Of a DNA stretch of 64,000 bases, positions 1 to 48,822 are shown piece after piece. A model generated the notes under the pieces. It made no database searches, was not told the DNA's origin, and saw nothing but the letters and a program-made list of their open reading frames with translations. Source of the stretch: Porogramme epimiltina (taxonomy: Eukaryota; Basidiomycota; Agaricomycetes; Polyporales; Polyporaceae). Positions within the stretch are counted from its first letter, which is position 1; every line of letters begins with the position of its first letter. The position numbers and the translations under genes were made by a program. Location of the stretch: contig FTLJ01000401.1 in the NCBI GenBank assembly GCA_900155495.1, positions 29,057-93,056 on the forward strand. The letters run 5' to 3'.

Positions 1-709
1 ACACCACCGCATGGATCTGGCGCTCTGGCAACTACGACTATCAGCACTCGGAACCTCAAAGCACTGGCCCCGAGCGTCTCCGATCTCAAGAGATTTCCTC
101 TTCGATGAAGTGCGTACGGTGTTTTAATACTGTTGTTGAGAGCCTGATTTTCAACGACAGTCACAGATAATCCTGCCATTACCCTATAGTATAGATGCCG
201 CTGCCTATTTTTCTTCTGACTTGTGTTGTACTCGAATGAGAAAGTGTATCTATTTAAACAGAGCATGATAAATCGTGACTCGAGCACGGACCGATGGCAT
301 CTGATAGATCAGGAGCAGTTCTTCTTGAGCGCAAACTGCTCGTATATGACCACCAAAGGCAAGACGAGTAGTATGACTACGGAGTTGCTATTTTACTGAG
401 CCTCAAGAAGTGGGGATGTAGTAATATCATGTAATTTGAACATTTGCAGGAATACAAGGTCTTGAACGGCTCTACGTGTTAAATAAGATCTCAAGTACTG
501 GGAAATTTATCTGAACGGGGACGGCGGAGAAGGTCAAGCGGAATATTGAAGAGGGTGGGGCTCGTGCTATGTATTCAAACTCTAGAGGTTGAGCTCTGGA
601 GGGAGCGCCTAGCGGAATTAGTGCCGCCACTCAACCCCGTAGATCTATCATAATCATTTATGTATGTCAAATTCCGCTTTAGTAAATACTAAACATGCAT
701 GTCTATTGC
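1..709. other. left-edge stretch without an assigned gene
   Basis: No convincing gene is visible. The first 170 bases have a plus-strand open frame that could be the last exon of a gene starting outside the window, but nothing in it is recognisable. The rest has stops in all frames and includes the 3' flank of the minus-strand 7TM gene that ends at 710. Confidence 0.4.
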
Positions 710-1845
710 TTACTTTTCTGTAGCATTCTCATCCAGAGAAAACGCGGGCGATGCATCGGGGAGCCGCGAGTTGCGGCGAGGAGAAGCGACCACAAGAGTG
801 GACTCTACGGCGACGCCAAGGCCGACTCGAATGATGATAAGGGTCGGCGCAATGCCCTAATACACGATGAACAAGTTTGTCAGCGTACGTACTAGAGTGA
901 TGCTCAAGGGGTAGGAGAGCGCTACCCACATATATCTGGACTGCTATCACAGCAATTATGCCTTGTGCGGGGTGACCGAGGGCAATGAGGATGACGAAGA
1001 TGAGCTGTACGGCCAGGTACAATGACCCGCTCTCGACGACCATAGCCATGGCAGCCCGTGTGGCACGCGATGTGTACTGGAAAGTCTTCGTCGAGTTGTC
1101 GCTTGAAGCGGTCATCCTCCAGATGCCGTACAGAATGATTCCTGTCGCCATGATATTGGAACACAACGGAAGGACATATCCTGCTGTTTGGAGGGGAATG
1201 AATGCAGCAGGTGCGGCGCTCTCCGGAGAGAGAGATAAGGCAATGTGGGCAACTATAATAATGCATCCTAAGATCATATTTCAGTGTCAACATGCGGCGG
1301 AGAGTAAAAAAGAAACTTACCGAATCCTGCAGCCGCCGAAAGGCCAGGTAAGACCACGACCCAGTAGTTTCTACCCCACATTACCCAACAGCGGTATACG
1401 AGGATAAAGTCTCCAAGGAGGTCGCATACGGAAATCATGAGGTCTGCTCCCAGTAACAGATTTGTCTCGAAGGCAAATCCATAGACATCACCCGCTTCCT
1501 AGAGCGATAATCTCATGATTAATTCAAAGGATCGAGACCATCTGAGAAACTCTCACCATTGCCACGTAGAAGTGGACAAATTGTAGAACGAAATGAGCTG
1601 TGCAAGAGGCGAAAAGAATACAGCTAGCGATGGCGATAGTGATGTTGGCATATCCCTTTTGTCGCGCACGGAATAGCAGCCGGAGAGAAAGAAAGAACAG
1701 TATAACGTATGCGCCTATTAAGTCAGATTGACATCGTTAAGTTCCAATTAGTGACACCTTTTGGTACAGTTGTTAAGTACTTACCCCAAAGGACGGCCTC
1801 ACAGGCGAAGCCCATAAGTCCCGCGATGTGACCAGTAAGTTGCAT
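710..1845 (-). CDS. 7TM receptor-like membrane protein, family A copy 1
   Basis: This gene encodes an integral membrane protein of about 292 residues with seven hydrophobic segments. It belongs to a basidiomycete family of unknown function with receptor-like topology. The five exons are 1785-1845, 1560-1714, 1321-1498, 930-1267 and 710-856, joined in phases 1, 0, 1 and 0 with GT-AG introns. Family hallmarks are GFACEAVLWG in TM1, LLLGADLMISVCDLLGDFIL before TM3, RCWVMWGRNYW, HPAQGIIAVIAVQIY and GIAPTLIIIRVGLG in TM7. The cytoplasmic tail is short (about 35 residues) and polar. The start is the ATG before QLTGHIAG, matching the first-exon length of copies 2, 4 and 5. No frame damage is seen. 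Ligand and signalling role are unknown; calling it a receptor is inference from topology only. Confidence 0.85.
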
Positions 1846-5771: not shown

Positions 5772-6163
5772 ATGCACTACCGCCTCCTAATCTTCTACTT
5801 TGCATCTACCCTAGCCGGCTGTTCATTTGGAGGTCCTGTCGACACAGCAGCCTCCCCAGTGGCGACATCAACGGCCAAGACCACGCCAGAGGTTGGCCCG
5901 GTGCCAACGAGTGCTGCGTTGTTGCCTATCAGTGAGCGAAGCTTCTTTCGCAGATCTCAAAGCACAACCAATACTCAAGCGCACTATCCCATTATCTCCA
6001 ATTAGACGTCATACCCCCCGCGGCCGACAGCGCCATCGGAAACATACTCTCGCCGGTCAACAGCGCCGTTGAAGGCATATTCTCGCCGATCGAGGAACTT
6101 TGGCATGGGCCGAAGGGCTCACCCAAGACCAAGGGTCACCACACGACTGCGACTCATCATTAG
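5772..6163 (+). CDS. small secreted protein, putative (105 aa)
   Basis: This is a two-exon model. Exon 1 is 5772-5931 and exon 2 is 6006-6163, with a 74-nt intron that has a strong GTGAGC donor and an AATTAG acceptor and splits a codon after its first base. The protein starts MHYRLLIFYFASTLAG, a typical signal peptide. A Ser/Thr/Pro/Ala-rich linker follows, then an alternating hydrophobic segment with two similar halves (IGNILSPVNSA and VEGIFSPIEEL), an LWHG motif, and a Lys/His-rich end. I do not recognise a family. Like the peptide genes at 16.3 and 18.3 kb, it has a leading signal, a phase-1 first intron and a late LW pair, and it converges on the tail of a family A 7TM gene. A shorter unspliced product ending at 6005 is the alternative. 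Confidence 0.5.
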
Positions 6164-6694: not shown

Positions 6695-7843
6695 CTAGTG
6701 GTAGTACCATTGGTATGTCACGCACCTTTCAGCATCTCGGTTTCGAGAATGCACTGAAGTTGCAATGTAGGGCCATGGCGCAAGCCTAATGGCGTCGATA
6801 AAAGGCCTCGATCTTGCGGAGGCGCCTAGACCAACACGAATAATGATGAGGGTCGGTGCGATACCCTAATACCGAGCGGAATGGTCAGCAAGAATATTAG
6901 CATCGCGCTTTGAACGTAGATGGCCGCGACGCACATATATCTGAACCGCCATCACACCGATAATGCTTTGTGCAGGATGGTCGAGAGCGGTGAGGACAAC
7001 AAGCACAAGCTGGACGACAAGGTACAAGGCACCGCTCTCCACCACCATGACCATGATGGCCCTGGAGAGATGCTGTGTCTGCGGGATAATACTCGTGGGG
7101 CTATCATGCGAGGGAGTCGTCCTTCGGATGCCGTACAAGATAATCGCCGTAGCCATTGCATTCGTGCACAGGGGAAGCACGTATCCTGCTGTCTGTAGTT
7201 GAAAGAATGCGGTAGGTAGCTCGTCGCTGGAGGAGAGTGTGAGGGCGATGTGGGCAACTACGGTGATGCATCCTAATTTAGAAAGGTGAGTATTCATGTC
7301 ATAGAGAGGACGATAAAACCTCACCAAATCCTGCAATTGCGGAAAGACTAGGTAGCAATATAACCCAGTAGTTCCTGTCCCATATGGCCCAACAGCGGAA
7401 TATAAGGATGACATGTCCAAGAAGGTCGCATACTGAAATCATCAGGTCCGCTCCTAGCAGTAAATTGTCTTCGTAGGCGTAACCATCGATATCTTCCGCT
7501 ACCTAAATCGACGGTTTGGTCAGCCGGAGGGATCGACGTCGTCTGAGAGTGTTCTTACCGTTTCTAGGAAGAAGTGGACAAACTCTAAGACAAAATGTGT
7601 CGTGCAAGCAGCAAAGAGCACACAGCTAGTAACAGCGATAGGGATGTTGGTATATCCCCTTCGCCGGGCGCGAAAAAGGACCACGAGAGAAAGGAGGAAC
7701 AGTGTCCCGTATACACCTAGAAATACAATAGTCGCACATTCCGTTCAGCGATTGTTCTACAATACAACTGATGAGTACTTGCCCCAGAGGATAGCCTCAC
7801 AGGGGAACCCCACAAGCGCAGCCACTGGGGATGTTAGTTGCAT
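6695..7843 (-). CDS. 7TM receptor-like membrane protein, family A copy 2
   Basis: This encodes about 301 residues and is closest to copy 1. Exons are 7783-7843, 7559-7716, 7325-7502, 6935-7272 and 6695-6865, and the exon lengths and phases match copy 1 apart from small in-frame differences. The first intron starts with GC instead of GT (GGG|GCAAGT), where the other four copies have GT. Conserved pieces are GFPCEAILWG, LLLGADLMISVCDLLG, HPAQSIIGVMAVQIY and GIAPTLIIIRVGLG. After TM7 the tail (from ASARSRPF) is unlike the other copies, and the usual ES(T) motif after TM7 is lost. The gene is open throughout, so it may work with an altered tail or be at the start of decay. Confidence 0.82.
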
Positions 7844-8747: not shown

Positions 8748-11249
8748 TCATGAAAAGTCGCCCTCCGTCACTAGTCTCACGACTAACGGGACTTGGGGCG
8801 TCTTGAAGTCGCCATGGGGCTCACGGACAACTGGAACCTGAAGGCCATCAATCCGCCAGTATATCTCCTTGCGCACACCATCTCCGTTTACTGCCGTAGG
8901 GAGAGCGAGATGCAGGTGGGACAACAGTGTGGACAACACTTGCTCTAAAGAACAATCAGTGGAAAGAAAGATCTGGCTCAGGATGAGCCACTCACTGATC
9001 TCCATCTCCGCAAACTTGAAACCGATGCAGGCACGACCGCCACCGAGGAAGGTCATCCTGTCAAACAACATCACATCAGCTTCAAGTCCGCAACCCCAAA
9101 ACACATTTCGGAAGCTTACATGGTCGCATACACGCCAGGGTACTTCACCCCAGCCTTGTACCCCGGCGTGCCCTCCCCGCCAGGCGCCGTCTGCTCGCTC
9201 GCCTCGTCCCCCTCTCCGAACGCGAGGTCGAGGCTCCGCCCGCCTGCGAGCCCAACGCGCTCGCCGGAGGGGGTGAGCCAGCGCTCAGGGCGCCACTCGT
9301 CCGCGTCATCCCCCCAGACGGCCTTATTGCGATTCGCGCCGAGGATGGAGATGACGACGTTCGTCCCTGCAGGGACGCGGACTGAGCGCACTTCCTCGCC
9401 GGCGGCATTCCGGAGTGGGAACTCGACGGGCAAAACGGCATCCTTCGTCGCGCTGCAGGGAAGTGTGCGTCAGCTACGTGCACAGGCGGACCACGAGGGA
9501 GAGAGGTGGTGGTGGAAGAGTGATGATACGCACGTGCGGTTGATCATGTTCGTTGGCGGGTGCATGCGGAATGTTTCACGCACGACGGCGTCGAGATACG
9601 GCAGGCCGACGAGTATGTCGTAAGGTAGGCTGACGTCCTCCCAGTTTCCCTCGTCGCCTTGAGTGGCGGCGTATGCGCTCTTGGCCTTGCGAATGTCGGC
9701 GCGTAGACGTGCTTGTGCTTGGGGCTCGCGCGCGAGAATGTAAAGGATGCGACCAAGCGCAGATGTAGTTGTCTCTTGGCCGCCGAGGAGCATAGTGCTA
9801 TGAACGACAGATTAACATGCTTGAAATGAGGGCGTTAAGTGGCAGTACATACTTGATCTGACCGGTGAGTTCAATGTCACTGAGACGCTCCTTCTCGGAT
9901 GTCGACGAGTTGGCCTCCACTACCCAGCTAGGAGTGAGCGAGACTGGGGGACCTTTTGCGAGAAGAAAATGCGTACGCATGATGGTCATCAAATCCCGCC
10001 TGCCATTTTTCGCAGAGTCCGTGGTACCTTGCTGCAGGGCGGTCCGTTTTTCAACGAGAATCTCCCGAGAGTACTTTTCCATGACGTATGACATTTCGCG
10101 GACTTCTCGTGCGGCGGGGAATGGGAGCCAGTCGATCATCTTGTTCCTCCAGTAAGAGGAGAAGTTGCGGACCGCCCACGGTACAAACGGACGAAGGAAG
10201 AAAATCTTGAGCCCCGTGTGACTGCCCATCTCTGGTTAGTCCCGAGGGGGCCAAGGCATGCGAACGAATGTACTCACGAGATATTGCGGATGACATGAAC
10301 GTACTCGTGAGTTTTGTTGGGGTCCAATACGCCAAAGGAAACTCCAAGCACGGCCTGGCCGACGTACTCTATCGTCCCGCGTGCCATCCAAGGGAGGACG
10401 TCTATCTCCTTCGCGCCTGGTTCTCTCGTTCATCAAGGCGACTTGCGACTAGGAATAGCTGACTCACTTCCGTCTGTAGGTATCTCGGCTTTGATCCCTC
10501 GGAGCAGCTCGTTCGCAATTGGCTGGATCACAGGTAGGAGTTGGCGCATGTTTGCCAAGGAGAACACAGGGTTGAGCATCTTCCTTTGTTTGCGATGTTG
10601 TTCTCCTACGACGTCAATAGAGACATTAAAACGCGATGAGAGAGAAGTAGATGGGGAAACACACCGTCCGTTGAGATTAGGCCCTCGCCAAAGAGCAACT
10701 GGTTGGTTCTAATGCGCGATCATAAGAAGGCCGGTGAGAGCCCCGCGCTGTATGCCACTCACTTAAGAAACATCTCAGTCTCGTGGTAGACATCTTGGTC
10801 CTTTACAACAACGTGGTGCAGGGCGCGGGGGTCTGAAACGAAAAGCTGCTCAGACTAGACATCCCACAGTTAGGCAGTGTCATCCAGGAGGTCAAGGTTG
10901 ACGTACCCCGAGCACACCATAGATCTTGATGACGCCTCCATATTCTCCAATTATCTTGAATGTGTAGTCGAACGAGTCCTTGAACAGCCTATGGAGGTTG
11001 CCTGTGGATAGGGAGATGCGCGTGAGGACGTCGAAGCCAGAAGAGAGGACTGCACGGAACAAGCGCCCACACTACCGCCACCACCTCCCCCACCCGTCGC
11101 CGAACGCTGCTAAACTCACCAGTCAACCAATGCTCCTTCTCTGGCCCCCTCACACTCGACAGCCTACTCGGAGTAGCGCGTCGCGACGTAAATTTCCACA
11201 AGGCGTACGCAACACCAAGAGTCCCGACCAACACCGAGAGCGAAGTCAT
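8748..11249 (-). CDS. cytochrome P450 monooxygenase
   Basis: This is a heme-thiolate monooxygenase, membrane-anchored in the ER. The start at 11249 gives an N-terminal hydrophobic anchor (MTSLSVLVGTLGVAYALW). About ten exons follow. Landmarks in order are SDPRALHHVV; LLFGEGLIST with HRKQRKMLNP (helix C region); the I-helix oxygen-binding motif GGQETTTSA (near 9770); ExxR as VVRETFRMHPP (near 9570); the PERF-type motif WRPERWL (near 9285); and the heme-Cys loop FLGGGRACIG (near 9050). All catalytic motifs are intact and the order is complete. The substrate is unknown, and I do not assign a CYP family. It lies about 1.8 kb from the UstYa-like gene, and such pairs occur in fungal peptide and terpenoid clusters. 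Exon borders are approximate. Confidence 0.93.
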
Positions 11250-11671
11250 AGCCGTCCTCGGAATACGGAGATGCGGATTGGGTCCGGAGCGTGAGGGGCG
11301 CCGTGGGGGAGGATAGGAGGGGTCGACGGACCGGGGTAAAGTGAGTGTTCTCCTCTTTACACGGCCCGGGATTTAGGCGTGGAGAAGAGATACCCAGGTC
11401 CCGCTCGGAGAATAGCCCATGGGCATGCAGCTCATGGTGTCCATCAAGCGACCGTCTTGATCAGCATAATAACGTCCTCCGGACCTCCGTTTTGGGCGGT
11501 CTGAGCATGCATGTCGAGGAATCGCTCCGGCTGCAAGAACTTGCCCATCAATATACCCCAGAGGCTGAAAGAGCCGCGCCCCGCCGCGTCCGCCATGTCG
11601 CCCCTTATGTTTAGCGACATAAGCGTCACTCGTTACGGTATACAAGTACACAAGATCCCCGAATGGCGTCG

Positions 11672-11977
11672 TTACCGCCTCTCCCCAGCTGCTTGAGCTA
11701 ACAGCACCTCCAACCCATTCCCCGTGTCTGGTCTCGGGAGCGAGCGCGTGTCTACAATGTCGAGGCTCTCCTGGATGGCATGGTATATTCCTTTCAACCG
11801 TACCGACGCGAAGACCCAAGCAAGGACGTTCACGACGAGGAGTGCAACTATGCCACATACCAGGGCCGTGTGGCCCCGTTGCCGAGGCGGCTTCGCGGTG
11901 GGACCATCGCGTAGATGAGGGTCGTGCTCGTCCAAGTCGTAATCCTCATCTTTTGCGAGTGGGGTATATTCTGACAT
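11672..11977 (-). CDS. small single-pass membrane protein
   Basis: An unspliced frame of 101 residues starts MSEYTPLAKDEDYDLDEHDP, an acidic, Tyr-containing N-terminus. A basic stretch follows, then one transmembrane helix (TALVCGIVALLVVNVLAWVFA, about residues 37-57) and a segment ending IVDTRSLPRPDTGNGL. The layout (short cytosolic N-tail, one helix, then a conserved-looking DTR-LPRPD stretch) resembles the N-terminal part of UstYa-like proteins, but the HxxHC motifs are absent. It could be a stand-alone partner, or the first exon of a longer gene that continues toward 11.4 kb by splicing at about 11695. It lies between the P450 and the UstYa-like gene. Confidence 0.5.
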   Translation of the reverse strand: MSEYTPLAKDEDYDLDEHDPHLRDGPTAKPPRQRGHTALVCGIVALLVVNVLAWVFASVRLKGIYHAIQESLDIVDTRSLPRPDTGNGLEVLLAQAAGERR

Positions 11978-13056: not shown

Positions 13057-13703
13057 ATGCACAAAACGACAATATTGCAATACCTCCTCTACGTACTCGC
13101 GCTCTTCACTGTGGCCAACATCGCGTTCATTGGGTTCCTCATACATACAATTGGCAAGCTCGTGCCACCGGAACGCACATACAGTACGTGCGCACACGAG
13201 TCTTCCATTCGCCCGCAGCTGACGTTTCCCCTCGCGCGCCGCCAGGCTACGTGGGCGACGACTTTCCCGCGCAGCTCCCGCTCAAGGTGCCTTCAGTCGG
13301 CCTCGCGCTCGGGACGGGCGAGCCGTACTTCGGGCTGCGCGCGGACGACGACTGGGGCTCGCAGTTCCCGCCCTCGGACGGCTTCACCGACCTCGGCGCG
13401 CAGAACCGCACGTTCCTCGTCTCAATGGTCCACCAGCTACACTGTCTGGACGTCATGCGCGTCGGGTTCGCGACGAACCGGACGGGGTTCGCGCACCACT
13501 TCGAGCACTGCCTGCGCTACATGCGCCAGGTCATCCTGTGCAACGCGGACACGACCCTGGAGCCGGACCATCCTGGGATCAGGGACGGGCAATGGACACA
13601 CGCGGCGGGAGGGGTGGGGAGCATCCATAGGTGCAAGGACTGGACGGCGGTGAGGAAGTATCTGGAGGAGAACCCGGCGCACGACCTCGGGCCCGCACGA
13701 TGA
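13057..13703 (+). CDS. UstYa-like (DUF3328) oxidase
   Basis: This encodes 194 residues from two exons, 13057-13183 and 13246-13703, with a 62-nt phase-1 intron. One N-terminal transmembrane helix covers about residues 5-34, followed by YSYVGDDFP, a usual family start. The family's two HxxHC motifs are both present: H105-QL-H108-C109 (in MVHQLHCLDVMR) and H127-FE-H130-C131 (in HHFEHCLRYMRQ). N-R-T glycosylation sites at residues 96 and 120 suggest a lumenal domain. UstYa-family proteins oxidise, cyclise, hydroxylate or chlorinate peptides and other metabolites in fungal clusters such as those for ustiloxin and cyclochlorotine. The substrate here is unknown; the peptide genes 2.6 and 4.6 kb downstream on the same strand are candidates. 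It converges on 7TM copy 3. Confidence 0.92.
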
Positions 13704-13914: not shown

Positions 13915-15323
13915 TCATGCCGCTTTCCCTACATGCGAATTCGACTCTAGGCCTTTCAACTCGACCGCAGATCCATTCTCTGCTTTAGTCGCGGTCGTCC
14001 CTGACGCGCCAGTGCCATCGGTATAATGCCCTGTAGTGAGCATCTCACTGCGCGTAGCCCACGCGAGCGGACCTGTCGAGACAGGCGCTTGCGTAGTCTC
14101 AATCGCGAGACCGAGACCAACCCGAATGACGATGAGCGTCGGCGCAATGCCCTGCGCGGGGAGAAAAGGCGGTGGTTAGCATCGTTCACAGGGGTCGTGG
14201 GGCGCCTGCGCCAAAAATGGAGGTAGGGTTGCCAACAACGAGAAGGAAGCCGCGCCCGGCGGCATGCGGCGGGGGTGGGAGCGGGAAGCGAAGGGAAGCG
14301 AAAGGATCGGCGTCATGAACTTACATAGATCTGCACGGCCATGACGGCGACAATGGCCTGCGCGGGATGCTTGATGTTGACGAGGACGACGAAGACGAGC
14401 TGTGCGGCGAGGTAGAGCACGCCGCTCTCGACGATGATGGACATCGCGGAGCGCGCGACGCGTGACGTGCTCTGCAGCACCTCGCCCGAGGGCCCGAGGC
14501 CGAAGTGCGTCGCGCGCCAGATCTTGTAGACGATGAGGCCCGTCGCCATTACGTTCGTACAGAGCGGAAGAGCATAGCCCGCAGTGGTCAAGGGGACGAT
14601 CGCCTCCGGTGGAACGGGGGAACTTGGGCTGAGTTCGAGGATGAAATGCGCGACTTCGGCGATACAAACTGGTAGAAGAAGCACGGCATGTCGGGGATAG
14701 GTGGGAAGTGTGGAGAGCGGTCAGCGATAGGTACCTGGCGCAGCAGACGATTACTCACTAAAGCCCGCAAGAGCCGTAAGTGACGGAAGTAGGACGATCC
14801 AGTAGTTTTTACCCCACAAAATCCAGCATCGGTACACCAAAATAAAGTCTCCAAATAGGTCGCATAGGGAGATGAGGAGGTCGGCGCCGACCAGAGGTTT
14901 AGTCTCGTTGGCGAACCCGTCGACGCCGGTAGCCCACTGAATGAGAACAGCGCCGTCAATGTTGTGTTCTCGTGACAGTTACCGAACGATGACGCACCAG
15001 GGTTGTATAGAAATGGTTGAATTCCAAGCCAAAATGTGCCGTGCACGCGCCAAATAGAACCAAACTTGCGATCGTGATAGTTAAGCTTGTTGATGCACCT
15101 TTTCTTCTGTGGAAGAGCAGGAGAATGGACACGCCAAAGAGAATGGTATACGCCCCTAGAGGTGGAGAGCAGAGGTCAGACGCGACGGAGATTATTTGCT
15201 AGTGAGATCGGACGCGGCGAGGGCGACGTCGCTTGGCAGGATAATCGACATACCCCAAAGGACCGCCTCACAGGCAAAGCCTATCAGGGCCGCTATGTCG
15301 TTTGGGAGGGCCGCATCCGCCAT
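13915..15323 (-). CDS. 7TM receptor-like membrane protein, family A copy 3
   Basis: This encodes about 328 residues. Exons are 15254-15323, 14998-15155, 14759-14936, 14325-14668 and 13915-14151, in phases 1, 0, 1 and 0. Motifs are GFACEAVLWG, GFANETKPLVGADLLISLCD, RCWILWGKNYW, HPAQAIVAVMAVQIY and GIAPTLIVIRVGLGLAIETT. The tail of about 60 residues is rich in Thr, Gly and Ser and so could be phosphorylated. It is closest to copy 4. Its start lies 963 bp from that of secreted peptide 1 and they are transcribed apart, so they may share regulation. Function is unknown. Confidence 0.88.
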
Positions 15324-16286: not shown

Positions 16287-16538
16287 ATGCGCTTCTTCGT
16301 CGCGTTCATCCAACTCGGACTTGTCCTGGCGGCATGGGGCATGCCCATCGCTTCCCCTGAAGCAGATGTCGACCCTGGTAAGCAAATATATCTCATCACA
16401 TTTCCTCGGCACGGCCTGACACTTCCGTTAGCTCCAGGTGCACTCTGGGAAGGCAGCGCCCATGTCGCAGTCAGCAGTGCGTGAAACATTGCCAGTAGAG
16501 TAACGTATTGTTCGCTTACGTTTTAACCTGCAGAGTAA
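16287..16538 (+). CDS. secreted micropeptide precursor 1 (46 aa)
   Basis: This is a three-exon micro-gene: 16287-16377, 16432-16476 and 16534-16538. The first intron splits a codon after base 1. The last intron also splits a codon, leaving a third exon of only five bases that supplies the final Lys and the stop. The product is a signal peptide (MRFFVAFIQLGLVLAAWG), an acidic Ser/Pro spacer, and the C-terminal segment ALWEGSAHVAVSK. It has no Cys and no Lys-Arg Kex2 site. The gene at 18283 repeats this architecture with a similar leader and C-terminus. I do not recognise the family. A UstYa-like oxidase and a P450 upstream suggest a processed (RiPP-like) or signalling peptide; this is inference. 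If the last intron were retained, the protein would end two residues later as SSA. Confidence 0.68.
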
Positions 16539-18178
16539 TACATAAGGGAAATTCTCCCTACTCCCTTCTGAGTATGCACCATCTTGTCGGCCGTCAAATA
16601 GCGGTGCCATGATACTAATTTCCGGGCGGTAGTGCGTTATGGACAATTATCGAGTGTTGGCATTCGATCTATCACCTACTTTTCCAACGTACCTTTGTAT
16701 TACACCAGTATCTTGTAGCCTTGTTATCTAAACTCTATATGGATCCTCCGACAACATCCCCTCCATCATATGGGGTGACCAACGATCACGCTGAGAGAGG
16801 GGGCAATGCTGACCATGAATGATATTCCTCGGTTATGCTCACATTAACTACCCACCGTATTGATATGGTCACACTTCTTGAAAACTGGTCACACCTCCGA
16901 AATCGACGTTAAAAGGAGCAGGGATAGATCTGGGAGAATGAGCGGCGATGCGCTTCAATATGAGAAGATCATGGGGGAGCGCCGGTCGTAGCTGCTTCAA
17001 ACTGAGCGCTTCTTCTTGTCCTGGAACTTCGACCACCATCTCTTTCGTCTTCGTGAACACCTCCCGACCTTCATATGCCCATCACGCCTCCATTTACCCT
17101 GTCGAATAACCCACACGGTGGCAATGACAAGAGGCCTGCCCACGGCGTCAAAAGCTGCACCCAAGTATTCGTCGTGGATCCAGAAAATAGTATCAATTAC
17201 AATCCAGCAACTACGGACATTCTATCAGATCACCGACTCCCCAATTTCGTCCTTTTCCGGGTGTTGAAATAGCGAGGTGTTGAATGGAGATCGCGACAAC
17301 AGGCCGGCGCCGCGGACCTTAGCGTCGGAGAATGTACTGTGCGGATAGCCATCCGGTGCGCGCTGACGTTAGGTTTGACCTGCCGCCCAATATCACCGGT
17401 TAGTACCTGGTGCATACTCCTTTGAAACGCTTCTAGACCCCCAAACCCCCTCATCTGTATCTATTCCGTCCTCCTTGCCAACTACAATGCGCACGCAGAC
17501 CAATGTATTCCTTCAGGCCTCAGAGTTCTGTCGCATAAGGCAGTGCTGCGGCCAACGACAACGTATGATACATCAAGAGAACCGCGATCCTCCTCATACC
17601 TCTTTCCATTCCTGCATCGTTTTCTCTCAGCCGCATCGGTCCCGCGCCCCTGCGATCCCACAAGTGGCCGCATTCGACAAACCCACTGTCAATGACGCGT
17701 CCTCGCATCCATGTGGAGCCAGCACATCAGGCCTTGACGCCGTGCACACGACCTCGCTGCCTCAAGGCCTCACGCGCACGGTTCCATCCCGCACCTCAGA
17801 AGCTACCGAAGGAATCCGGTGCTCCATCACGAGAGAACGCGGCGCGCGGATCTCCTCTCCCGGGATACCCGGGGCGCGCGGTATCCTTCCGGTGCGATTA
17901 GTCCCCGCCTCGAGCCTTACCACATCCGCGGGGCCCTGCGCCCACCTAGAAGCTCTCCTTGAAGGTTCTCGATGCGCCGACGGGAACGCGAGAATGTCTC
18001 GCACTGGCGTCGACAGCGCTGGGACCGCATTGTACTGCATGCGCGCCGACGTACGTGGGCGGTGACAGTGCTGCACCCCGGCTTCTTTTGTGCTCCAGAA
18101 CAGGGATCCGAGGACGATCGCAGCGGGATGGCTCACAGCCCCGTGCGTGTTGCAATTGCTCGATACGCATGTATCGCA
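16539..18178. other. spacer between the two peptide genes
   Basis: No gene is supported. The plus-strand frame at 17475-18065 (196 codons) has no signal peptide, domain or splice context and lies in GC-rich sequence. The region contains the upstream promoter of peptide gene 2. Confidence 0.4.
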
Positions 18179-18185
18179 TATAAAT
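18179..18185 (+). promoter_or_regulatory. TATA box of peptide gene 2
   Basis: A perfect TATAAAT lies 104 bp before the ATG at 18283, matching the placement of the TATA-like box in the paralogue. Confidence 0.6.
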
Positions 18186-18282
18186 CCGCTCCCCGGGGCT
18201 CGTTGAGCGCTCCGCCTCTCACCAATCACCTCCCTGCAGGGCGCCGTTACCTCCTCCCTCTTCCCGTTGTCAAAGGGTCAAG

Positions 18283-18597
18283 ATGCGCTTCTTCCTCGCT
18301 CTCATCCAGCTCGGCCTAGCCCTTGTAGTCATGGGATCGCCTGTCAAGAACACTCGAGCGGTTGCGAATCCCAATGCCGGTAAGTACCCAAACTCGCCTT
18401 TCATGCTTAGGCTTGGGCCAAGATCCTGTCATTGATACTGATATGCGTTCCTTCTCTCAGTAAGCCCCGAGCCAGGCAAGTTGTGGGCTAACGCTGCTCA
18501 CGTTAAGGTCAACCAAGGTAGGTCTCATCTCACAGCTGATAGCTTGGGAACACCCTTCTATCCCTCTAAATTTGCTCACCTGCCCTTCGCAGACTAG
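18283..18597 (+). CDS. secreted micropeptide precursor 2 (52 aa)
   Basis: The exons are 18283-18379, 18461-18522 and 18593-18597. As in peptide gene 1, both introns interrupt codons after base 1, and the last exon is only five bases (the final Asp codon plus the stop). The leader MRFFLALIQLGLALVVMG is nearly the same as that of peptide 1. A more basic spacer (VKNTRAVANPN) follows, then EPGKLWANAAHVKVNQD. The shared C-terminal pattern is P-G-x-L-W, then three residues, then A-H-V-x-V. The conservation lies in the signal and the C-terminal 12-15 residues while the spacer varies, as expected for a precursor with a functional C-terminal core. No Cys or dibasic site is present. It converges on 7TM copy 4, whose end is 434 bp away. 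Confidence 0.7.
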
Positions 18598-19030: not shown

Positions 19031-20291
19031 CTACACTGCGCTATGCCGCGTGCTGCCTTGTGAACGGAAACTCTTTAGCTCCAGAGACTGGTTGTCGAGC
19101 TTGGTTGTCGATTGGCCGACGGCGTTGCTGCCGTGGACGGTGCGCGAGTACGCATCTGTGGAGACAATTCCCTCGCTCGTTCTGGCCCACGTGATGGGTT
19201 CTGTGAGCGGAGCATGCGTCGACTCGACCGCAATGCCGAGCCCGACGCGGATGATGATGAGCGTCGGGGCGATGCCCTGTGGGTGACAAATAGCGGAGTC
19301 AGCACAATGGGGTGGGAAGACTGCATATCCGAGTCGCAGAATGATCATGCATGCGGTGGGCGGACGGCTACTCACGTATATCTGCACGGCCATGACGGCG
19401 ACGATGGCCTGCGCGGGGTGCTTGATGTTGACGAGGACGACGAAGACGATCTGGGTGGCAAGGTAGAGCATGCCGCTCTCAATGATGATCATCGCCGCGC
19501 TCCGCGCGATCCGCGACGTGTGAGGAAGCGCAGAGTCGGTGCCTAGCATGGGTCGCGTCGAACGCCAGATCTTGTACACGATGAGCAAGGTGCAAATGCC
19601 ATTTGTGCAGAGGGGGAGCGCATATCCCGCAGTAGTGAGCGGTACGATTGACGCCGGGGGGACGGGCGAGGATGGAGTGAGCGCGAGGACGAACCGCGCG
19701 ACCTCGGCGATGCACCCTGTGAGGGCGACAGTAAGAAAGTGGGGGTAAGGGGGGGCATACGAGGCAAGCTCACCGAAACCTCCGATCGCACAGAGTGTTG
19801 GAAGGATAATGACCCAGTAGTTCTTTCCCCACAGTATCCAGCACCGATAGATGAGGATGAAATCGCCGAAGAGGTCGCACAGAGAGATCAAAATGTCTGC
19901 GCCTACTAGAGGTTTGGTCTCGTTCGCAAAGCCGTCAACGCCGAGGTGCCACTGGTGACGGTGACGACATGAGCACCAATATTGACCTAGATGAGTGAAG
20001 TATGACTCACTAGCGTGATGTAAAAGTGGTTGAACTCGAGCGCGAAGTGTGCTGTGCACGCAGCGAACAAGACACAACTGGCCGTGGCAATAGGGACATT
20101 CAGCAGCCCTCCTTTTCTTCTGCGTAGAAGCAGAACCAAAGAAGTGCCGAAGAGGATCGAATATGCCCCTGTGAGAAGACTGCGTGTGAGCTACAACGGG
20201 ACATCGAAGACGTGAAGAAGCAAACCGTACCCCAAAGAACCGCCTCGCAGGCGAACCCAATCAGGGCCGCGATGTCGTTTGGGAGGGGCAT
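19031..20291 (-). CDS. 7TM receptor-like membrane protein, family A copy 4
   Basis: This encodes about 327 residues. Exons are 20231-20291, 20011-20168, 19774-19951, 19376-19716 and 19031-19276, in phases 1, 0, 1 and 0. It has the same motifs as copy 3 (GFACEAVLWG, GFANETKPLVGADILISLCD, RCWILWGKNYW, HPAQAIVAVMAVQIY, GIAPTLIIIRVGLGIAVEST) and a Ser/Thr-rich tail. Introns 2 to 4 happen to lack stops in one frame, so a single 409-codon open frame spans the gene. That frame does not give the conserved N-terminus, so splicing is the right reading. Copies 3 and 4 flank the two peptide genes. Confidence 0.88.
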
Positions 20292-21748: not shown

Positions 21749-24085
21749 GTGCACCACCTTCTTCACTACTGCTGCTGGACGTCATCGGAATCTTCGCCTC
21801 AGTTCTACTCAGTGCCGAGGATGTGTTTGAAGCCCCTTCTAGTTTCTCTTCGCAATCAACGCTACCTCCGGCATGCTAAGCAGCGGCCTAGCAATACCCA
21901 ACCCGTTACTTCTCCCCTCTCCGACACTCTGCAAAGCTCGTGTAATCAGGGAGTCCGCTGCACCGAACAGTCTGCTCCCCCCGGTGGTCGTTTTCACGAA
22001 GAACCTATCGCAGATGCGATCACTTACGGGGATTTTTATACATCCGAAATCGTGGAAGAGCATGTCCTATGTCTGCAATGCAAGGAGTCGGTTGCCACGT
22101 CGTCATCCTTTCAAGAAAATAGTCACCTTTCCCGAGGATCGTCAAATGTCCTTCACTATGCGGATCGCAAGTTTCTTGAGGACTCCGCTGGCGGTATGAC
22201 TGTGCCTCCTCGTTTACCGTGTCATCTTTGCTCCCTCGTTCTCGGTAGTGTCATACAAAGAGAACGACAGCAGCCAGACTTAGCTGCTCCAGCTGGCCCC
22301 ATACAGGTTACCTTGGATGTCTCGCGTTCGGGTGGAGTCACGCTCGTCGTTCAGATAGGGGAACCAAACACGCTCGGTAAAATGGGCGAACTTGTCGTAG
22401 TGCCTGCTGACACAGAAAACTCTACGTTGGCGACGAATCCCAGTAATCCACCCTTCAGGTTCATCGAGGCTACCGCACACATTTACCGAACCGCCCAACT
22501 CGTAAAGTCGCTCGAATCCGAGGCATCTTTCTCTCTGGGGATAGAGTGGCTGGACCAATGCTTGAGAGACCACCCCAGATGTACCGAAGCGGCGCAATTA
22601 GCGTCTGGTCGTCCCTTCAGACTCGTCGATGTTGGACACAACAACGGGACGGATCCAAGGGTCGTGGTGATGGACGTGTCAAAACCTATACCCTCATATC
22701 TTACGCTAAGTCATTGCTGGGGTGGCGCCATTATCCTCCGCCTCCTTCTAGAGAACGTCGACCGACTGACAAGAGGAGTACCTATGCACGAGTTGCCGAA
22801 GACATTCCGTGATGCGGTGATCATAACTCGACGACTAGGGTGAGCTTTATGCCCCCCTATTTGTACATTATTAACATAATGTAACCCTGCTAGATACCGG
22901 TACATCTGGATTGACTCCCTCTGCATCATCCAGGACTCTCCACCGGACTGGCGCACCAATGCTGCCGTCATGGGTGAGATCTACGCGGGCTCCGTTTGCA
23001 CTATCGCGGCGCTCACCGCACGCAACGCGCACGATGGCGGGTGCTTCTTTGAGCATGCGCGCAACCCTCTCTTCTTCCGTCCGTGCCGCCTCAACCCTCG
23101 CTGGTCAGTCGAAGGAAATCCCTACGTCGGGACAGACCTGAGGCTCGGACCGCCGTGGTTAGGACCGTTCCCACTGCATACGCGTGCGTGGGTTGTCCAG
23201 GAGCGTCTGCTTGCTCCACGCACACTCTATTACGGCTATAATGGGCTCGCATGGGAGTGCGCGACATGTTCTGCGACGGAGGGCGTCCCAGAAGGTGAAC
23301 AATCGAGGTTCTCTCCCAAGGCATCCTTCTTCGAGATTATGCGTCAGCTTCCCGGAGAAGATAGAAGCCAGGGGCAAGTCGCGGACCCGGAGCTCCTGGA
23401 GAAGATATATGACCTCTGGACGGACATTCAGATAGCGTACAGCCGTTGTCTCCTGACGCATTTCGACGACAGACTAGTAGCCATCTCAGGTGTCGTCAAG
23501 CGCATCGAGGCAGCGACTGGATGGCGAAGCATGTGGGGGATGTGGAGAGAGCGCATCTTGGCCGACATCCTGTGGTTCACGGAAGAGCCGAGTGCGAGGC
23601 CGAAGACATCAGAATACCTCGCACCGACGTGGTCATGGGCGGGATTGGAAGGTCGAGTAATGACGGCTATCGGCGGGGGAGGAAGGGGGTGTGAATGGAC
23701 TGCTGAGGTGCTCTCCGACGGAAAGCTTACAGACGGTCGTGGTTATCTCCACCTGAAAGCGATGGTGAAGCCGGTCATCCTCACTGCGGGAGGGAGGCTC
23801 AACCCGGGTATCACATCCCCGGCGCAGAGCTGGGAGGAGATCGACTGGAATCCCGACGAGATGCTAGAGGACACTGACGTGGGTTGCGAATTGCAATGCG
23901 TTTCTGTTGTGAGGATCCCAGATTACTTGGGGCCGGGAACCTTCGCTTTTGAAATCGGACTAGTCACCAAGAAGACTTCACAGGATGAAAGTTGGCTGAG
24001 AATAGGTGTATTCAGGCAACTGCGCAATGGGACGGCACTCTTTGGAGAGTCTTTGGAAAACGCTACGGAGTTGACTCTTCTTTAA
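21749..24085 (+). CDS. HET-domain (heterokaryon incompatibility-type) protein
   Basis: The two exons are 21749-22839 and 22894-24085, with a 54-nt phase-2 intron inside the HET domain, giving about 760 residues. The domain starts at YLTLSHCWGG (about residue 318) and continues with LPKTFRDAVIITRRLG, YIWIDSLCIIQDS and DW, then MGEIYAGSVCTIAAL and WVVQERLLAPRTLYYG. These are the usual conserved blocks. HET domains mediate self/non-self recognition and cell death after hyphal fusion in ascomycetes; the role in basidiomycetes is less clear. No NACHT, WD40 or ankyrin partner domain is seen. The N-terminal 310 residues include CxxC pairs (CLQC, CHLC) that could bind metal. A start at 21821 is an alternative. 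Confidence 0.92.
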
Positions 24086-42026: not shown

Positions 42027-43247
42027 GCCTGTGGTAGAGTGGTCGCGACTACATGTATATCCTGCACTAATTGACTCGCATGCTACAATCCCCATTGCCT
42101 CTCCTCACGGTACGACTTTCGAAAGGTCGACAATGGGCACTACCCAGTTCTCCTTAGGTCGAGGGTTCCGTTTGCTTCTACACGTTCGACCCTCCACCCA
42201 ACAGGAATCGCGGTGTCAAAGTGCTCTGTTAAACAGGTTCTTCTACAACTGAGCCCGTACGCATTATCTTCTATGCCCCATTCAACGCCTACATCTCTTG
42301 CAGAATGCACACTCGCATTCCCCTATGCACGGATTGCAACATTCAGGATACGGGAAAACGATTCATGGAGGTGATCGCTATGTCAGACCGTTCCCCTTGG
42401 GTTTAGCTAGACCCCGTACGTATCACCATCGACCTCCCGTATGGACTGACGCTTCATTTCCAGACGTGTCCGCATCGACTTCTCCGTCGCAGTATCTCCT
42501 TGCCTTGCGTCAACACCACCCTTGCTTAATCTCCCGCTCACCCCCAAGTAGACAGTTACGTCCCTACGTAGCTGGTCTTCGCGTGGCGTCTTGCCCGAAA
42601 GGTGTGCGTGTCCTCCTGTAGCGTATTTCGTGGCCCTTCCTGACAACAACGTCATCCGTAGACCCACGGGTAAACAGGAATCGTCGACGGGAAAAAACAT
42701 CAAACACGTGGATAGGGAGCCGAGACGTCCCTAGTCGATGCTCCCGGAATATTGGTGCCCGACGCATGATATCCCGTCGGAGTCTCGCCGTGGCTGGCTA
42801 GCGGTTCTACGCTCCTCATTCTCGATTCACCGTCGATACTAACCCATACCTGGATCTAACTCGAAGGCGCCTTGCCCTATCGCTGATATAAATACCACTG
42901 ACTCCCCCGTATCTAGTCCATTGAGGTTCTCTAGCTCGCTCGGAGATCAATTTCCGCTGCCTGGCATTGCGGCGTGAAGATTATGTCACCGAAAGCGGGA
43001 GAAACCTCCTGACAAAACGCCCTTAGAACGTGGTGACACAGCCCCGCCTTTCAGTGAGTGGCTACACAGTACGAGGCCCTAGACCAGTCGTTGACGCGTC
43101 CTTGTGCTTGGAATAGCTGCAGCTCACCGGTGGAGCGTATTCACGCATTTCAACCGGAGATAAGGCACGTGAATCGGGTTTGTATTTTTGAATAAATGTA
43201 ATTGGTTCGGATGGCTGTTGTCCGCTCGTGCCCCCTCTCCCCTCGCC
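42027..43247. other. intergenic, no gene seen
   Basis: This lies between uS5m and the APH-like array. Short unsupported frames only. Confidence 0.4.
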
Positions 43248-44117
43248 ATGGGCACTATCCTCAGCCCTGCCACCAATCGCATACGCCGCCTTCTCCTTCC
43301 CAGCCTCATTCCGCGAGCCAAACAACTCAAGGGGACTACGGTCTACCAGCTTAACGCGACCACTGTAGTCAAGGTCACCGATGTTAATATGCACCGCGCA
43401 GAAGTTGACGCTACGAAATATGTGGCCGCAAACACAACGATACCAGTCCCGCGCATATACGACCATTGGGAGCACGGCAGCGATGGCTACATCGTCATGG
43501 AATTCATCGAGGGCGTCACCCTGCGCAAGGCTTGGAAGACGCTCACTGAGGCTCAGCGCGCGCGAATCATGCACACCCTTGTTGGTTACATCCACCAACT
43601 CCGTGCTCTTCCCCAGCCTCCGCCACCGCCCTCGTCGAACCTCCCGCGCACGGGTTGGATAGGTTCCGCGTCTTGTCGTGGGTTCTCCGACATGTTGGCC
43701 TACTCGAACTACACCCCGACTGGGCCGTTGCCCAATCAAACGGCGTGGCACGACTGGCGGCTCTCACTCTACAGGTTCGCCCTATCCAACCCGAGTTCCG
43801 CCGCTCGTCTAGCCCAGGTTCGGAAAGAGTTTCGAGAAGACGACCCTATTGTCTTCACGCACGGCGACCTCAGTATGTTGAACATCATGGTGCGCGTCGA
43901 CGGAGACAGGCCGGAGGATGCGAAGATCACAGCGGTGATAGACTGGGAGCAGGCGGGTTGGCGTCCAATCTATTGGGAAGGCGTGAAATGTCTGTGGATG
44001 GAAAGTAAGCCCGACTGGGTCCAGTTCATACGGGAGGCTCTGAACGCGGGATACGCGTGGGTGGAGGAGTTGGAGGTAGAGCTGGTGGGGCTCGAAGGTG
44101 GCATCCCCCCTGGCTAA
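43248..44117 (+). CDS. APH-fold kinase-like protein, array copy 1
   Basis: A single exon encodes 289 residues. It is an aminoglycoside phosphotransferase-type (protein kinase-like) fold with its catalytic elements intact: lysine in VVKV with the paired RAEVDA glutamate, hinge YIVMEFIEGVTL, Brenner motif HGDLSMLNIMV, and the metal-binding VIDWEQAGWRP. The N-terminus IRRLLLPSLIPRAKQLKG recurs in copies 2 and 3. Family members phosphorylate antibiotics, homoserine, choline or other small molecules; the many fungal paralogues are mostly uncharacterised, so no substrate is given. It is the first of four head-to-tail copies; an upstream in-frame Met at 43188 is less likely. Confidence 0.9.
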   Translation: MGTILSPATNRIRRLLLPSLIPRAKQLKGTTVYQLNATTVVKVTDVNMHRAEVDATKYVAANTTIPVPRIYDHWEHGSDGYIVMEFIEGVTLRKAWKTLTEAQRARIMHTLVGYIHQLRALPQPPPPPSSNLPRTGWIGSASCRGFSDMLAYSNYTPTGPLPNQTAWHDWRLSLYRFALSNPSSAARLAQVRKEFREDDPIVFTHGDLSMLNIMVRVDGDRPEDAKITAVIDWEQAGWRPIYWEGVKCLWMESKPDWVQFIREALNAGYAWVEELEVELVGLEGGIPPG

Positions 44118-44463
44118 GTGCCGTGAACACCTGGGAGTACACACACACTCCGCCCCAAGTGCTTCTCCTTCCTCCGAGCATGACTTTCTCTTCTTCCAAC
44201 TTGAGCAAATGCAGGTTCTTCGGATATTCATGTATTTCCCTATACGCCTATAAGCTCTCCTATGTATTTTTAGGCTCAATGTCTCTGTATGTACATCGTG
44301 TCAGTAGTTGATATGCAATTTTGAAATATGACCCTCATGCGTACATGAGTGGCAAGTAGTCCTGACGGAATCGAAGGGCACGCGGATCCGGTTCGCGTTT
44401 ATATGGACAAATGTCGGCTAGAATTATTCGAACTTACTCGCGTTTCACCCCTTCTTGCAGACC
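44118..44463. other. spacer between APH copies 1 and 2
   Basis: 346 bp with no coding signal. It must carry the end of copy 1 and the promoter of copy 2. Confidence 0.4.
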
Positions 44464-45330
44464 ATGACCACTCTTCTCGATCTCTTGACGAATCGCATAC
44501 GCCGTATATCCCTTCCCTATCTCCGTTCACGCGCCAAGAGACTAAAGGAGAGCGTCTGGCAACTGAACGCTCGAACGATCCTCAAAATCAGCGAGGTCGA
44601 TATCAATCGTGCAGAAGTGGATGCAATGCGTTTCGTCGCCGAGAACACCACTATTCCCATTCCGTGTCTGTACGACCACTGGGAGAAAAGTGGAGAAGGG
44701 TACATCATCATGGAATTTGTGGAGGGCATCACTCTGCGCAGAGCCTGGAAAGCCCTCACCGAGGCCCAACGCGCGCACGTCATGCGTACCATCGCCGGTT
44801 ACGTTTATCAGCTGCGCGCCCTCCCGCAACCGCCTCCCCCTCCAACGTCCGGCCTCCCGCGTACAGGCTGGATAGGCTCCGCGTCGTGCCGTGGGTTCTC
44901 CGACATGCTGGCTTACGCCAACTACACCCCTATAGGACCATTGCCGAACGAGGCGGCGTGGCATGATTGGCGTATACCGCTCTACGACCTCGCGCTCTCG
45001 ATTCCGGTCTACGCGGAACGCCTGGCGCAGATCCGGAAGGAATTTCGGGACGACGACCCCATCGTCTTCACGCACGGCGACCTTAGCATGTTGAACATAC
45101 TTGTGCGCGTCGACGGTGAGGGCCCGGAGGATGTCAAAGTCACGGCGGTGTTGGATTGGGAGCAGGCGGGGTGGCGGCCGATCTACTGGGAAGGCATAAA
45201 GTGGTGGTGGATGGAGGGTAAGCCTGATTGGGTTCAATTTATGCGGGAGAACCTGAACGCTGGATACGAGTGGGCGGAGGCGTTGGAGGCAGAGTTGTTG
45301 AAGCTCGGTGGCGGTCTTCCTCCTGCTTGA
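44464..45330 (+). CDS. APH-fold kinase-like protein, array copy 2
   Basis: A single exon encodes 288 residues, very similar to copy 1 along its length. Motifs are ILKISEVDINRAEVDA (ATP lysine and paired Glu), YIIMEFVEGITLRRAW, GWIGSASCRGFSDMLAY (shared almost exactly with copy 1), HGDLSMLNILV and VLDWEQAGWRPIYWEG. The start is the ATG at 44464, which follows a CTTGCAG run that resembles an intron acceptor, so a 5' non-coding exon is possible. The high similarity to copy 1 suggests a recent duplication. Substrate unknown. Confidence 0.9.
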   Translation: MTTLLDLLTNRIRRISLPYLRSRAKRLKESVWQLNARTILKISEVDINRAEVDAMRFVAENTTIPIPCLYDHWEKSGEGYIIMEFVEGITLRRAWKALTEAQRAHVMRTIAGYVYQLRALPQPPPPPTSGLPRTGWIGSASCRGFSDMLAYANYTPIGPLPNEAAWHDWRIPLYDLALSIPVYAERLAQIRKEFRDDDPIVFTHGDLSMLNILVRVDGEGPEDVKVTAVLDWEQAGWRPIYWEGIKWWWMEGKPDWVQFMRENLNAGYEWAEALEAELLKLGGGLPPA

Positions 45331-45431
45331 TTCTAGAGGCACGTGACATAATGACGGTTGTAGTGTCACTTGTTTGTTTCTTGACTTCCCTGTTTCCTCT
45401 CTGTATTGCCTCCAGAAGTGCCTCCTTCACA

Positions 45432-47544: not shown

Positions 47545-48822
47545 TCAAATAGCGTATCCGTGATCCTGTGTCGTCTGGGTTTCCACTCGCCGCAATGCAA
47601 GAAACTTCATCTCCATCCTATCCTTGGGCGCCGCCTCTTCACGTGGGCCTTTGAGACCCACGACGTTCGCACCGCCGAACGACACGCCGGGCAGGAGCGC
47701 GTCCTGTGGTTCTGGTGAACGTTCCCCACCCGACGCCACCTGCGTTGCCTGAGACGCCGCAGAGGACCCTCGCGGGGGCGGCGACTCGCTCGAGAACCCG
47801 AGCGCAACCTGCATGACCATGAGAGTCGGCGCGATACCCTAGACCAGGAGAGCGTCAGCGTTTACAGTTTGCCGCGTTTGCCGTCAACCCGCACTCACGT
47901 AGATCTGCGCCGCCATGACCGAGACGATCGCGAGCGCGGGGTGCCTCACGGCGAAGAGGACAACGAAGGTGAGCTGTGTCGCGAGGTAGAGTGCCCCGCT
48001 CTCGACGATGATCGTCATCGCACGCATGGCCGCGCGCACGGTGCTCGCCTCGCGCGTTGGGTCGCGTTGTGCCCGGCGGGCGGTGAGGTAGAGCCTGGCG
48101 ACAATGAGGGCGGTCGCGATGGCGTTTGTGACGAGAGGGAGGGTGTAGCCTGTGAGGCCGAGAGGGAACGCGACGGTGGACGGCCGGGGCGCGGTTGGGT
48201 CTGTAGTGGCGATGATGTGGGCTACGGCTGCGATGCATGCTGAAGGTAGTACGGGAGGTCGGGTGTCTTGGGATGAGCGCAGGTAAATCATGAGAATGAA
48301 GGGGGCGTACCAAAGCCGCACAATGCCGTGATGAATGGAAAGAGCACGACCCAAAAGTTTCGTCCCCATATTACCCAACATCGATAAAGAAGTACGAGCT
48401 GTCCTATGAAATTGCTGAGCGAGACCAAGAGGTCTGCGCCGACTAGTCCCTTGGTCTCGTTTGCGAATCCCTTCACTCCTATGGTGCTCTGCTCTCAGGA
48501 TGAGCACACAGCCGTAGTCATCTGTTCGGATGGACTCACCAAGGTGGTAAAGTAATGGCTCAATTCAAGCAAGAAGTGGGCAGTGCATGATGCAAATAGG
48601 GCGCAGTTGGCGGTGAAGATGGGGATATTCATATCACCTGCACGCTGGCTACGGCGGAGGAAGACAACCGTTGATGCAACGAAAAGAACGTAATAGGCTC
48701 CTAAGCAACATGCTATTAGACCCCTAGGTAGTAAGCAAAGATAAGACAGGGGAGGACGCACCCCATAAGACGGCCTCGCACGCGAACCCGACGAGAGCTG
48801 AAAGATCCTTTGAAAGTACCAT
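47545..48822 (-). CDS. 7TM receptor-like membrane protein, family A copy 5
   Basis: This encodes about 344 residues. Exons are 48762-48822, 48540-48700, 48311-48488, 47899-48239 and 47545-47838, again in phases 1, 0, 1 and 0. Motifs are GFACEAVLWG, GFANETKGLVGADLLVSLSNF, RCWVIWGRNFW, HPALAIVSVMAAQIY and GIAPTLMVMQVALGFSSES. It is the most diverged of the five and lies 27 kb from the others. It has the longest tail (about 80 residues), rich in Ser, Pro and Gln. It overlaps at the 3' side with the end of the APH array. Confidence 0.87.

What the first reader, a model, noticed from the sequence alone, without database searches (positions are those of the whole stretch)
16287..18597. A pair of paralogous 46/52-residue secreted peptides with a peculiar three-exon structure
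Two genes 2 kb apart encode tiny proteins with nearly identical signal peptides (MRFF-A-IQLGL-L). Their spacers vary, and they share a C-terminal pattern: PG-LW, three residues, AHV-V. Both have two introns in phase 1, and the last exon is five bases long in each, giving only the final codon remainder and the stop. The shared structure argues for real genes that annotation pipelines would miss. The absence of Cys and Kex2 sites makes them unlike known ustiloxin-type precursors.
Basis: partly seen in the sequence, partly recalled or inferred. Interest (0 to 1): 0.88.

Follow-up and report, generated by a model that had tools for sequence, protein, structure and literature searches.

The report
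Mushroom peptide and receptor gene array
Two very small secreted-peptide genes in a mushroom genome look real and sit in a repeated gene array with a peptide-tailoring enzyme and receptor-like membrane proteins, which suggests an undescribed peptide signalling system.

Summary
P1 (16287-16538) and P2 (18283-18597) are paralogues with two phase-1 introns and a 5-base last exon. A third member, P3, with the same architecture lies on contig C223.

The surroundings change the interpretation:
- A UstYa (DUF3328) gene starts 3.2 kb before P1; P3 lies beside a UstYa of the same clade.
- Nine strong relatives of one 7TM protein were found in the genome, all on three contigs that each carry a UstYa of that clade.
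- In named fungal records, 20 of 26 UstYa contigs also carry a listed 7TM relative (1.1 expected).
- Two 7TM models match Ste2, the yeast alpha-factor receptor, best, by a small margin. By sequence it is neither STE2 nor DUF6534.

After the signal peptide the "variable spacers" are X-Ala/X-Pro ladders in register, the leader type removed by dipeptidyl aminopeptidase, which would explain the missing Kex2 sites. Release would give LWEGSAHVAVSK, LWANAAHVKVNQD and WNLANHVVVDQ.

Best explanation: secreted ligands, trimmed by DPAP, probably tailored by UstYa, sensed by the neighbouring 7TM. Gene reality is well supported; UstYa tailoring is likely; the receptor link is inferred. No RNA or peptide data were available.

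The parts
16287..16538 (+). P1 peptide gene; exons 16287-16377, 16432-16476 (or 16438-16476), 16534-16538; 46 (or 44) aa
18283..18597 (+). P2 peptide gene; exons 18283-18379, 18461-18517 (or 18476-18517), 18593-18597; 52 (or 47) aa
16178..16185 (+). TATA-like box of P1 (CATAAATA, 109 bases before the ATG)
18179..18185 (+). TATA-like box of P2 (TATAAAT, 104 bases before the ATG)
13057..13703 (+). UstYa (DUF3328) gene, exons 13057-13183 and 13246-13703, both HxxHC motifs present
   Evidence: PF11807 2.7e-18, 5.5e-18 for the spliced protein; model; motifs
11373..11977 (-). Gene 'M': acidic N-terminus and one membrane segment, divergent from UstYa; reading frame after about 11680 uncertain, may be decayed
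   Evidence: homologue beside P3 and its UstYa, 51% over 47 aa; no Pfam family at 0.01
8750..11240 (-). Cytochrome P450 gene, borders approximate
   Evidence: exon 9470-9811 matches PF00067, 2.7e-16
13915..15323 (-). 7TM gene w3, tail-to-tail with UstYa; 3' exon border uncertain
19031..20291 (-). 7TM gene w4, tail-to-tail with P2 (433 bases between the stops)
710..1845 (-). 7TM gene w1
6695..7843 (-). 7TM gene w2, tail-to-tail with S1; first exon aligns with gaps
47721..48822 (-). 7TM gene w5, 3' end uncertain; no peptide candidate beside it
5772..6163 (+). S1, candidate secreted peptide gene (exons 5772-5931, 6006-6163) with ELWHG
   Evidence: candidate only
1..170 (+). Possible last exon of S3, whose first exon is at C326:28762 (L022 9706-9862), left of the window; acceptor uncertain
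   Evidence: weak candidate

Best explanation
P1 and P2 encode secreted peptide ligands in a ligand-enzyme-receptor array. (1) The signal peptide is removed after Gly18 (inferred from small residues at -3/-1 and a conserved Pro at +2). (2) The X-Ala/X-Pro pro-leader is removed two residues at a time by a dipeptidyl aminopeptidase of STE13 type (the pattern is shown, the cleavage inferred), releasing an 11-13-residue peptide that begins at (Leu-)Trp. (3) In the secretory lumen the membrane-anchored UstYa enzyme modifies it, most likely at the conserved Trp and/or His, possibly as a Trp-His crosslink (inferred), perhaps helped by the P450. (4) The product is exported and sensed by the neighbouring 7TM protein, whose relatives are predicted to have a GPCR fold (pairing inferred from linkage and tail-to-tail gene order). 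The peptide and 7TM paralogues would be diversified ligand-receptor pairs, outside the STE3 mating-type locus.
For: Genes. Leader: Ala/Pro at the second position in 16-17 of 25-28 dipeptides and at the first in 0-3 of 25-29 over four splice combinations, 0 to 22 of 100,000 shuffles as extreme; one DPPIV_N gene in the genome. UstYa; clade A of 5 among 19, support 100/98; P3 beside its C223 member. 7TM: 9 strong matches, all on three contigs with a clade-A UstYa; 33 DUF6534 pieces, none on those contigs. Other fungi: 20 of 26 contigs shared, 1.1 expected; locus tags GSI_14645/14644, AcW1_002871/002873, QCA50_013819/013821. Fold: Ste2 first in both models. Gene order: P2-w4 and P3-7TM tail-to-tail.
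Against: No RNA, peptide or binding data. No peptide found in another species. Clade-A UstYa loci on C99 and C782 show no convincing peptide, C782 no 7TM, and 7TM genes t0, w5 and C99 no peptide. In named Boletales the 7TM is listed without a clade-A UstYa. 6 of 26 contigs are not shared, and 13 of 43 named UstYa rows are in species or strains with no listed 7TM.
Confidence: 0.45

Rival explanations
1. The locus is a UstYa-type RiPP pathway for a bioactive metabolite. P1-P3 are single-core precursors; the 7TM regulates production or senses or tolerates the product, and is not a dedicated signal receptor.
For: UstYa, P450 and small precursors together; DUF3328 proteins tailor peptides (PMC12435403); GPCR genes inside biosynthetic clusters are on record (PMC12842992, passages).
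Against: Expanded 7TM array and tail-to-tail pairing with peptides; no transporter or tyrosinase was identified, but the genes were not annotated exhaustively.
Confidence: 0.31
2. P1-P3 are unmodified secreted peptides sensed by the 7TM; UstYa acts on another substrate of the array.
For: Alpha-factor-like leader and short linear core; two 7TM models closest to Ste2; no Tyr in the cores.
Against: UstYa of one clade lies near P1/P2 and near P3 and is linked to the 7TM in other fungi; Trp and His are invariant in the three cores.
Confidence: 0.18
3. The peptides are not genes, or are decaying copies; the similarity is chance or residual.
For: No RNA evidence; very short; alternative acceptors; P1-P3 and P2-P3 show a weaker third-position excess (18/16/26 and 22/19/28).
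Against: Third copy with the same three-exon structure, synonymous changes at 17 of 24 identical degenerate codons of P1-P2, TATA-like boxes at -104 to -110, rarity of the architecture.
Confidence: 0.04

Closest known systems
Ustiloxin-type RiPPs / dikaritins (UstYa, DUF3328)
   Same: Secreted ribosomal precursor next to a UstYa gene with both HxxHC motifs; P450 nearby.
   Different: One core at the C-terminus instead of repeats; no Kex2 site; no Tyr in the core; DPAP-type leader; 7TM genes linked.
Yeast alpha-factor and Ste2 (class D GPCR)
   Same: Short Trp-containing secreted peptide, STE13-type dipeptide leader (alpha-factor details recalled), 7TM whose best structural match is Ste2.
   Different: No Kex2 repeats; receptor not STE2 by sequence; UstYa beside it; basidiomycete, whereas STE2-like receptors are reported only from Ascomycota (PMC12842992, passages).
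Basidiomycete lipopeptide pheromones with STE3 (B mating locus)
   Same: Small peptide genes and several 7TM genes in one array.
   Different: No CAAX end; STE3 genes lie on another contig, C92.
KEPs with STE13 signature in Basidiomycota (PMC6339444, passages; PMC7329392, passages)
   Same: Secreted precursors with X-A/X-P dipeptides; possible hormones; some KEP genes lie near DUF3328 genes.
   Different: KEPs are defined by repeats cut by Kex2, absent here, so these surveys would not list P1-P3.
Agaricomycete DUF6534 7TM proteins proposed as GPCRs (PMC12842992, passages)
   Same: Seven-helix membrane proteins expanded in Agaricomycetes.
   Different: Not a member by Pfam; DUF6534 pieces lie on other contigs.
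Plant burpitides such as moroidin
   Same: Copper enzyme acting on a core with Trp and His; moroidin has an imidazole-indole crosslink (PMC11764418, passages).
   Different: Unrelated enzyme family; here a crosslink is only conjecture.

Membership tests
Ustiloxin-type RiPP (dikaritin) | UstYa/DUF3328 gene close to the precursor gene | tested here: met
   UstYa ends 2.6 kb before P1; P3 is 1.6 kb from its UstYa start
Ustiloxin-type RiPP (dikaritin) | Repeated cores separated by Kex2 dibasic sites | tested here: not met
   one core each, no dibasic pair in P1-P3 (sequences)
Ustiloxin-type RiPP (dikaritin) | Tyr in the core as crosslink site (common, not universal; 65.6% of DUF3328-linked KEP repeats hold Tyr, PMC7329392) | tested here: not met
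   no Tyr in P1-P3
Ustiloxin-type RiPP (dikaritin) | Oxidative modification of the core by UstYa | not testable with these tools
   needs expression or mass spectrometry
DUF3328 copper enzyme | HxxHC(x)nHxxHC | tested here: met
   HQLHC and HFEHC in the window's protein; the six residues invariant in 30 aligned relatives
Kex2-processed repeat protein (KEP) | Repeats delimited by Kex2 sites | tested here: not met
Alpha-factor/Ste2 system | STE13-type X-A/X-P leader | tested here: met
   with the choices of register stated
Alpha-factor/Ste2 system | Receptor matching STE2 (PF02116) | tested here: not met
   no Pfam family at 0.01 for 3 spliced 7TM models; no STE2 at E 1 in 7 relatives; no STE2 piece on C326, C99 or C223
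Alpha-factor/Ste2 system | Receptor of Ste2 fold | tested here: inconclusive
a-factor/STE3 mating pheromones | C-terminal CAAX and STE3 (PF02076) neighbours | tested here: not met
   no Cys in P1-P3; the 17 STE3 pieces are all on C92
DUF6534 7TM | PF20152 over its cut-off | tested here: not met
   best 17.5 bits against 28.2, one exon of w3; none at E 1 in 7 relatives; none of 33 genome pieces on the array contigs

The most novel reading that the evidence does not exclude
A class of fungal intercellular peptide signals: DPAP-trimmed, UstYa-tailored 11-13-mers with conserved Trp and His, paired with a dedicated receptor family of Ste2-like fold and arranged as tail-to-tail ligand-receptor pairs, in mushrooms, where alpha-factor/Ste2 signalling is not known.
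Probability: 0.37. Interest if true: 0.94.

Novelty: new variant of a known kind. Interest (0 to 1): 0.82.

Why it matters
Mushroom genomes hold many 7TM proteins without known ligands. This locus names, from sequence alone, a candidate ligand, its maturing enzyme and its receptor, and the enzyme-receptor linkage recurs across Polyporales and Russulales. If true, UstYa chemistry would extend from toxins to signalling, RiPP mining would gain a precursor type without Kex2 sites, and pairing of orphan receptors in basidiomycetes would become directly testable in yeast.

Tried and rejected
Mating pheromones: no CAAX, and the STE3 genes are elsewhere. 7TM as DUF6534 or STE2 by sequence: not met. 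PDB by sequence with the 7TM profile: 0 matches at E up to 10. Whole-genome search with P1 finds P1 and P2 only and misses P3, so it is not proof that there are no more. Peptide on C99 or C782: C99:125350 (...HLWEQHERGG) judged noise: poor signal, no TATA-like box. The first UstYa tree used minus-strand loci in the wrong orientation and was discarded; one search corrected the orientation but stopped at the display; the tree used is.

S1-S3 were found by looking beside 7TM genes, and the Trp-His scan was built after S1 and S2 were seen. Strict form: 4 starts, all on C326 (S2, S1, P1, P2), 0 in reversed DNA, P3 missed by its donor. Relaxed form (257 kb): 9 starts = 5 genes (P1, P2, P3, S1, S2), an internal ATG of S2 and 3 others; 2 in reversed DNA. 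Wider patterns in the same call gave more noise. Leader scan: 10 starts (P1-P3, S1, S3, an internal ATG of S2 and 4 others) against 2 in reversed DNA. S1-S3 do not show a clean ladder. Co-divergence of peptide type and 7TM clade: too few rows (45-55 of 500 shuffles as low). Separately, the three leaders reach 0.010, 0.026 and 0.032 only. P0001 has the same ORF as P3, and P0002 is the P1 ORF with 2 changes, one in the intron: near-identical strains, not conservation.

Literature: (open-licence papers, listings; passages of five papers and the main text of PMC12435403); none of what I saw joins UstYa, a 7TM and such peptides. Subscription papers were not searched.

Full report
WHAT WAS CHECKED. 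The window is C326:29057-93056 of an unnamed 41.9-Mb genome in 926 contigs. A degenerate DNA pattern for the C-terminal motif hits only these two places in the genome; read backwards it hits none. An architecture scan over 263.6 kb gave 13 models at 7 starts; P1, P2 and one more scored 108, 108 and 96, the next -1.3, reversed DNA at best 16.7.

THIRD MEMBER. P3 lies on contig C223 (L033, minus strand, 2979-2707): MRFTLILVQLVFFAVALGIPIEHETDEAEVEPSPDVGPWNLANHVVVDQ, with two phase-1 introns and again a 5-base last exon. TATA-like boxes lie 109, 104 and 110 bases before the ATGs of P1-P3. P1 and P2 agree in 26 of 45 aligned residues while 17 of 24 degenerate identical codons differ synonymously, with differences by codon position 14/14/27 (P1-P3 18/16/26, P2-P3 22/19/28). 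Outside a 32-bp match at the start of exon 1 the two regions show only a 15-bp chance-level match (E 0.28). So the protein, not the DNA, has been kept.

WHY NO KEX2 SITE. After Gly18 the spacer reads as dipeptides. P1: MP.IA.SP.EA.DV.DP.AP.GA, then LWEGSAHVAVSK. P2 with the alternative acceptor: SP.VK.NT.RA.VA.NP.NA.GK, then LWANAAHVKVNQD. P3: IP.IE.HE.TD.EA.EV.EP.SP.DV.GP, then WNLANHVVVDQ. Ala/Pro stands second in 16-17 of 25-28 dipeptides and first in 0-3 of 25-29, over four splice combinations; 0 to 22 of 100,000 shuffles are as extreme. Singly the leaders reach 0.010, 0.026 and 0.032. I chose the ends and register after looking. Dipeptidyl aminopeptidases remove such ladders; the likeness to yeast alpha-factor leaders and pro-melittin is recalled. 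The genome holds one DPPIV_N gene.

THE ENZYME. The gene at 13057-13703 is UstYa (PF11807 2.7e-18; spliced 5.5e-18). The genome has 19 matches. Five form one clade, support 100/98: this one, C326:21.6 kb, and those on C223, C99 and C782. P3 lies between its UstYa and a 7TM gene. Gene M (11373-11977, minus), divergent from UstYa, has a homologue beside P3 and its UstYa (51% over 47 aa, E 2.6e-12 in a search of that 10-kb stretch alone). A P450 exon lies at 9470-9811. The DUF3328 hydroxylase CctR is a copper enzyme with its catalytic part in an organelle lumen (PMC12435403, abstract and main text).

THE 7TM PARTNER. An exon of w4 finds 11 matches in the genome: nine of 73-183 bits, seven on C326 and one each on C99 and C223, then two of 26.7 and 26.6 bits. 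All three contigs carry a clade-A UstYa; C782, the fourth, has no strong 7TM match. As a specificity control, 33 DUF6534 pieces lie on other contigs. In other fungi the clade-A UstYa exon gives 89 hits and the 7TM 206, 120 of them listed. Among distinct contigs in species or strains with a listed 7TM it is 20 of 26, with 1.1 expected for independent placement in 40 Mb. Contig length stands in for contig identity. Locus tags are adjacent in Ganoderma sinense (GSI_14645/14644) and two apart in Taiwanofungus (AcW1_002871/002873) and Cerrena (QCA50_013819/013821). Named Boletales appear in the 7TM listing but not in the UstYa listing.

GENE ORDER. P2 and w4 are tail-to-tail with 433 bases between the stops, P3 and its 7TM with 735. 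UstYa and w3, and the C99 UstYa and 7TM, are also tail-to-tail. Looking into other gaps turned up S1 (5772-6163), S2 (C326:24.05 kb) and S3 (C326:28.76 kb), each a secreted start with a TATA-like box and a phase-1 donor, each tail-to-tail with a 7TM; S1 and S2 hold [LI]WHG. They are candidates only. The 7TM genes beside them form one clade (100/99). No candidate with a TATA-like box was seen beside t0, w5 or the C99 7TM.

READING. Gene reality is close to certain short of RNA. The DPAP-type leader is well supported. UstYa tailoring is likely from repeated linkage; its chemistry is conjecture. The receptor role rests on exclusive linkage, gene order and fold. The array is not the STE3 locus, which is on C92.

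Noticed in passing
window 43188-47493: Four APH-family phosphotransferase ORFs in tandem (PF01636, 4.8e-19 to 4.6e-12).
   Followed up: partly
window 50671-51318: HMG-box ORF (PF00505 1.4e-13).
   Followed up: no
window 21749-24085: Two ORFs, the first with a sub-threshold HET match (18.9 bits against 22.5).
   Followed up: no
L033 3510-3777 (C223) and window 11373-11977: Gene M and its homologue: one membrane segment and a ..D[IV]V[ED]TRSLP.. motif, perhaps a UstYa-like protein without the HxxHC domain or a decayed copy.
   Followed up: partly
P0003 (ENA): UstYa ORF near-identical to the window's at first and like the C782 copy at its end: recombination or assembly chimera.
   Followed up: no
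G000:C63:11664-11870: Borderline STE2 (PF02116) piece, 27 bits, with a stop inside, in a basidiomycete genome.
   Followed up: no
L038 298-441 (C293): Secreted start with an Ala/Pro-rich stretch after the signal, near two divergent UstYa genes.
   Followed up: no
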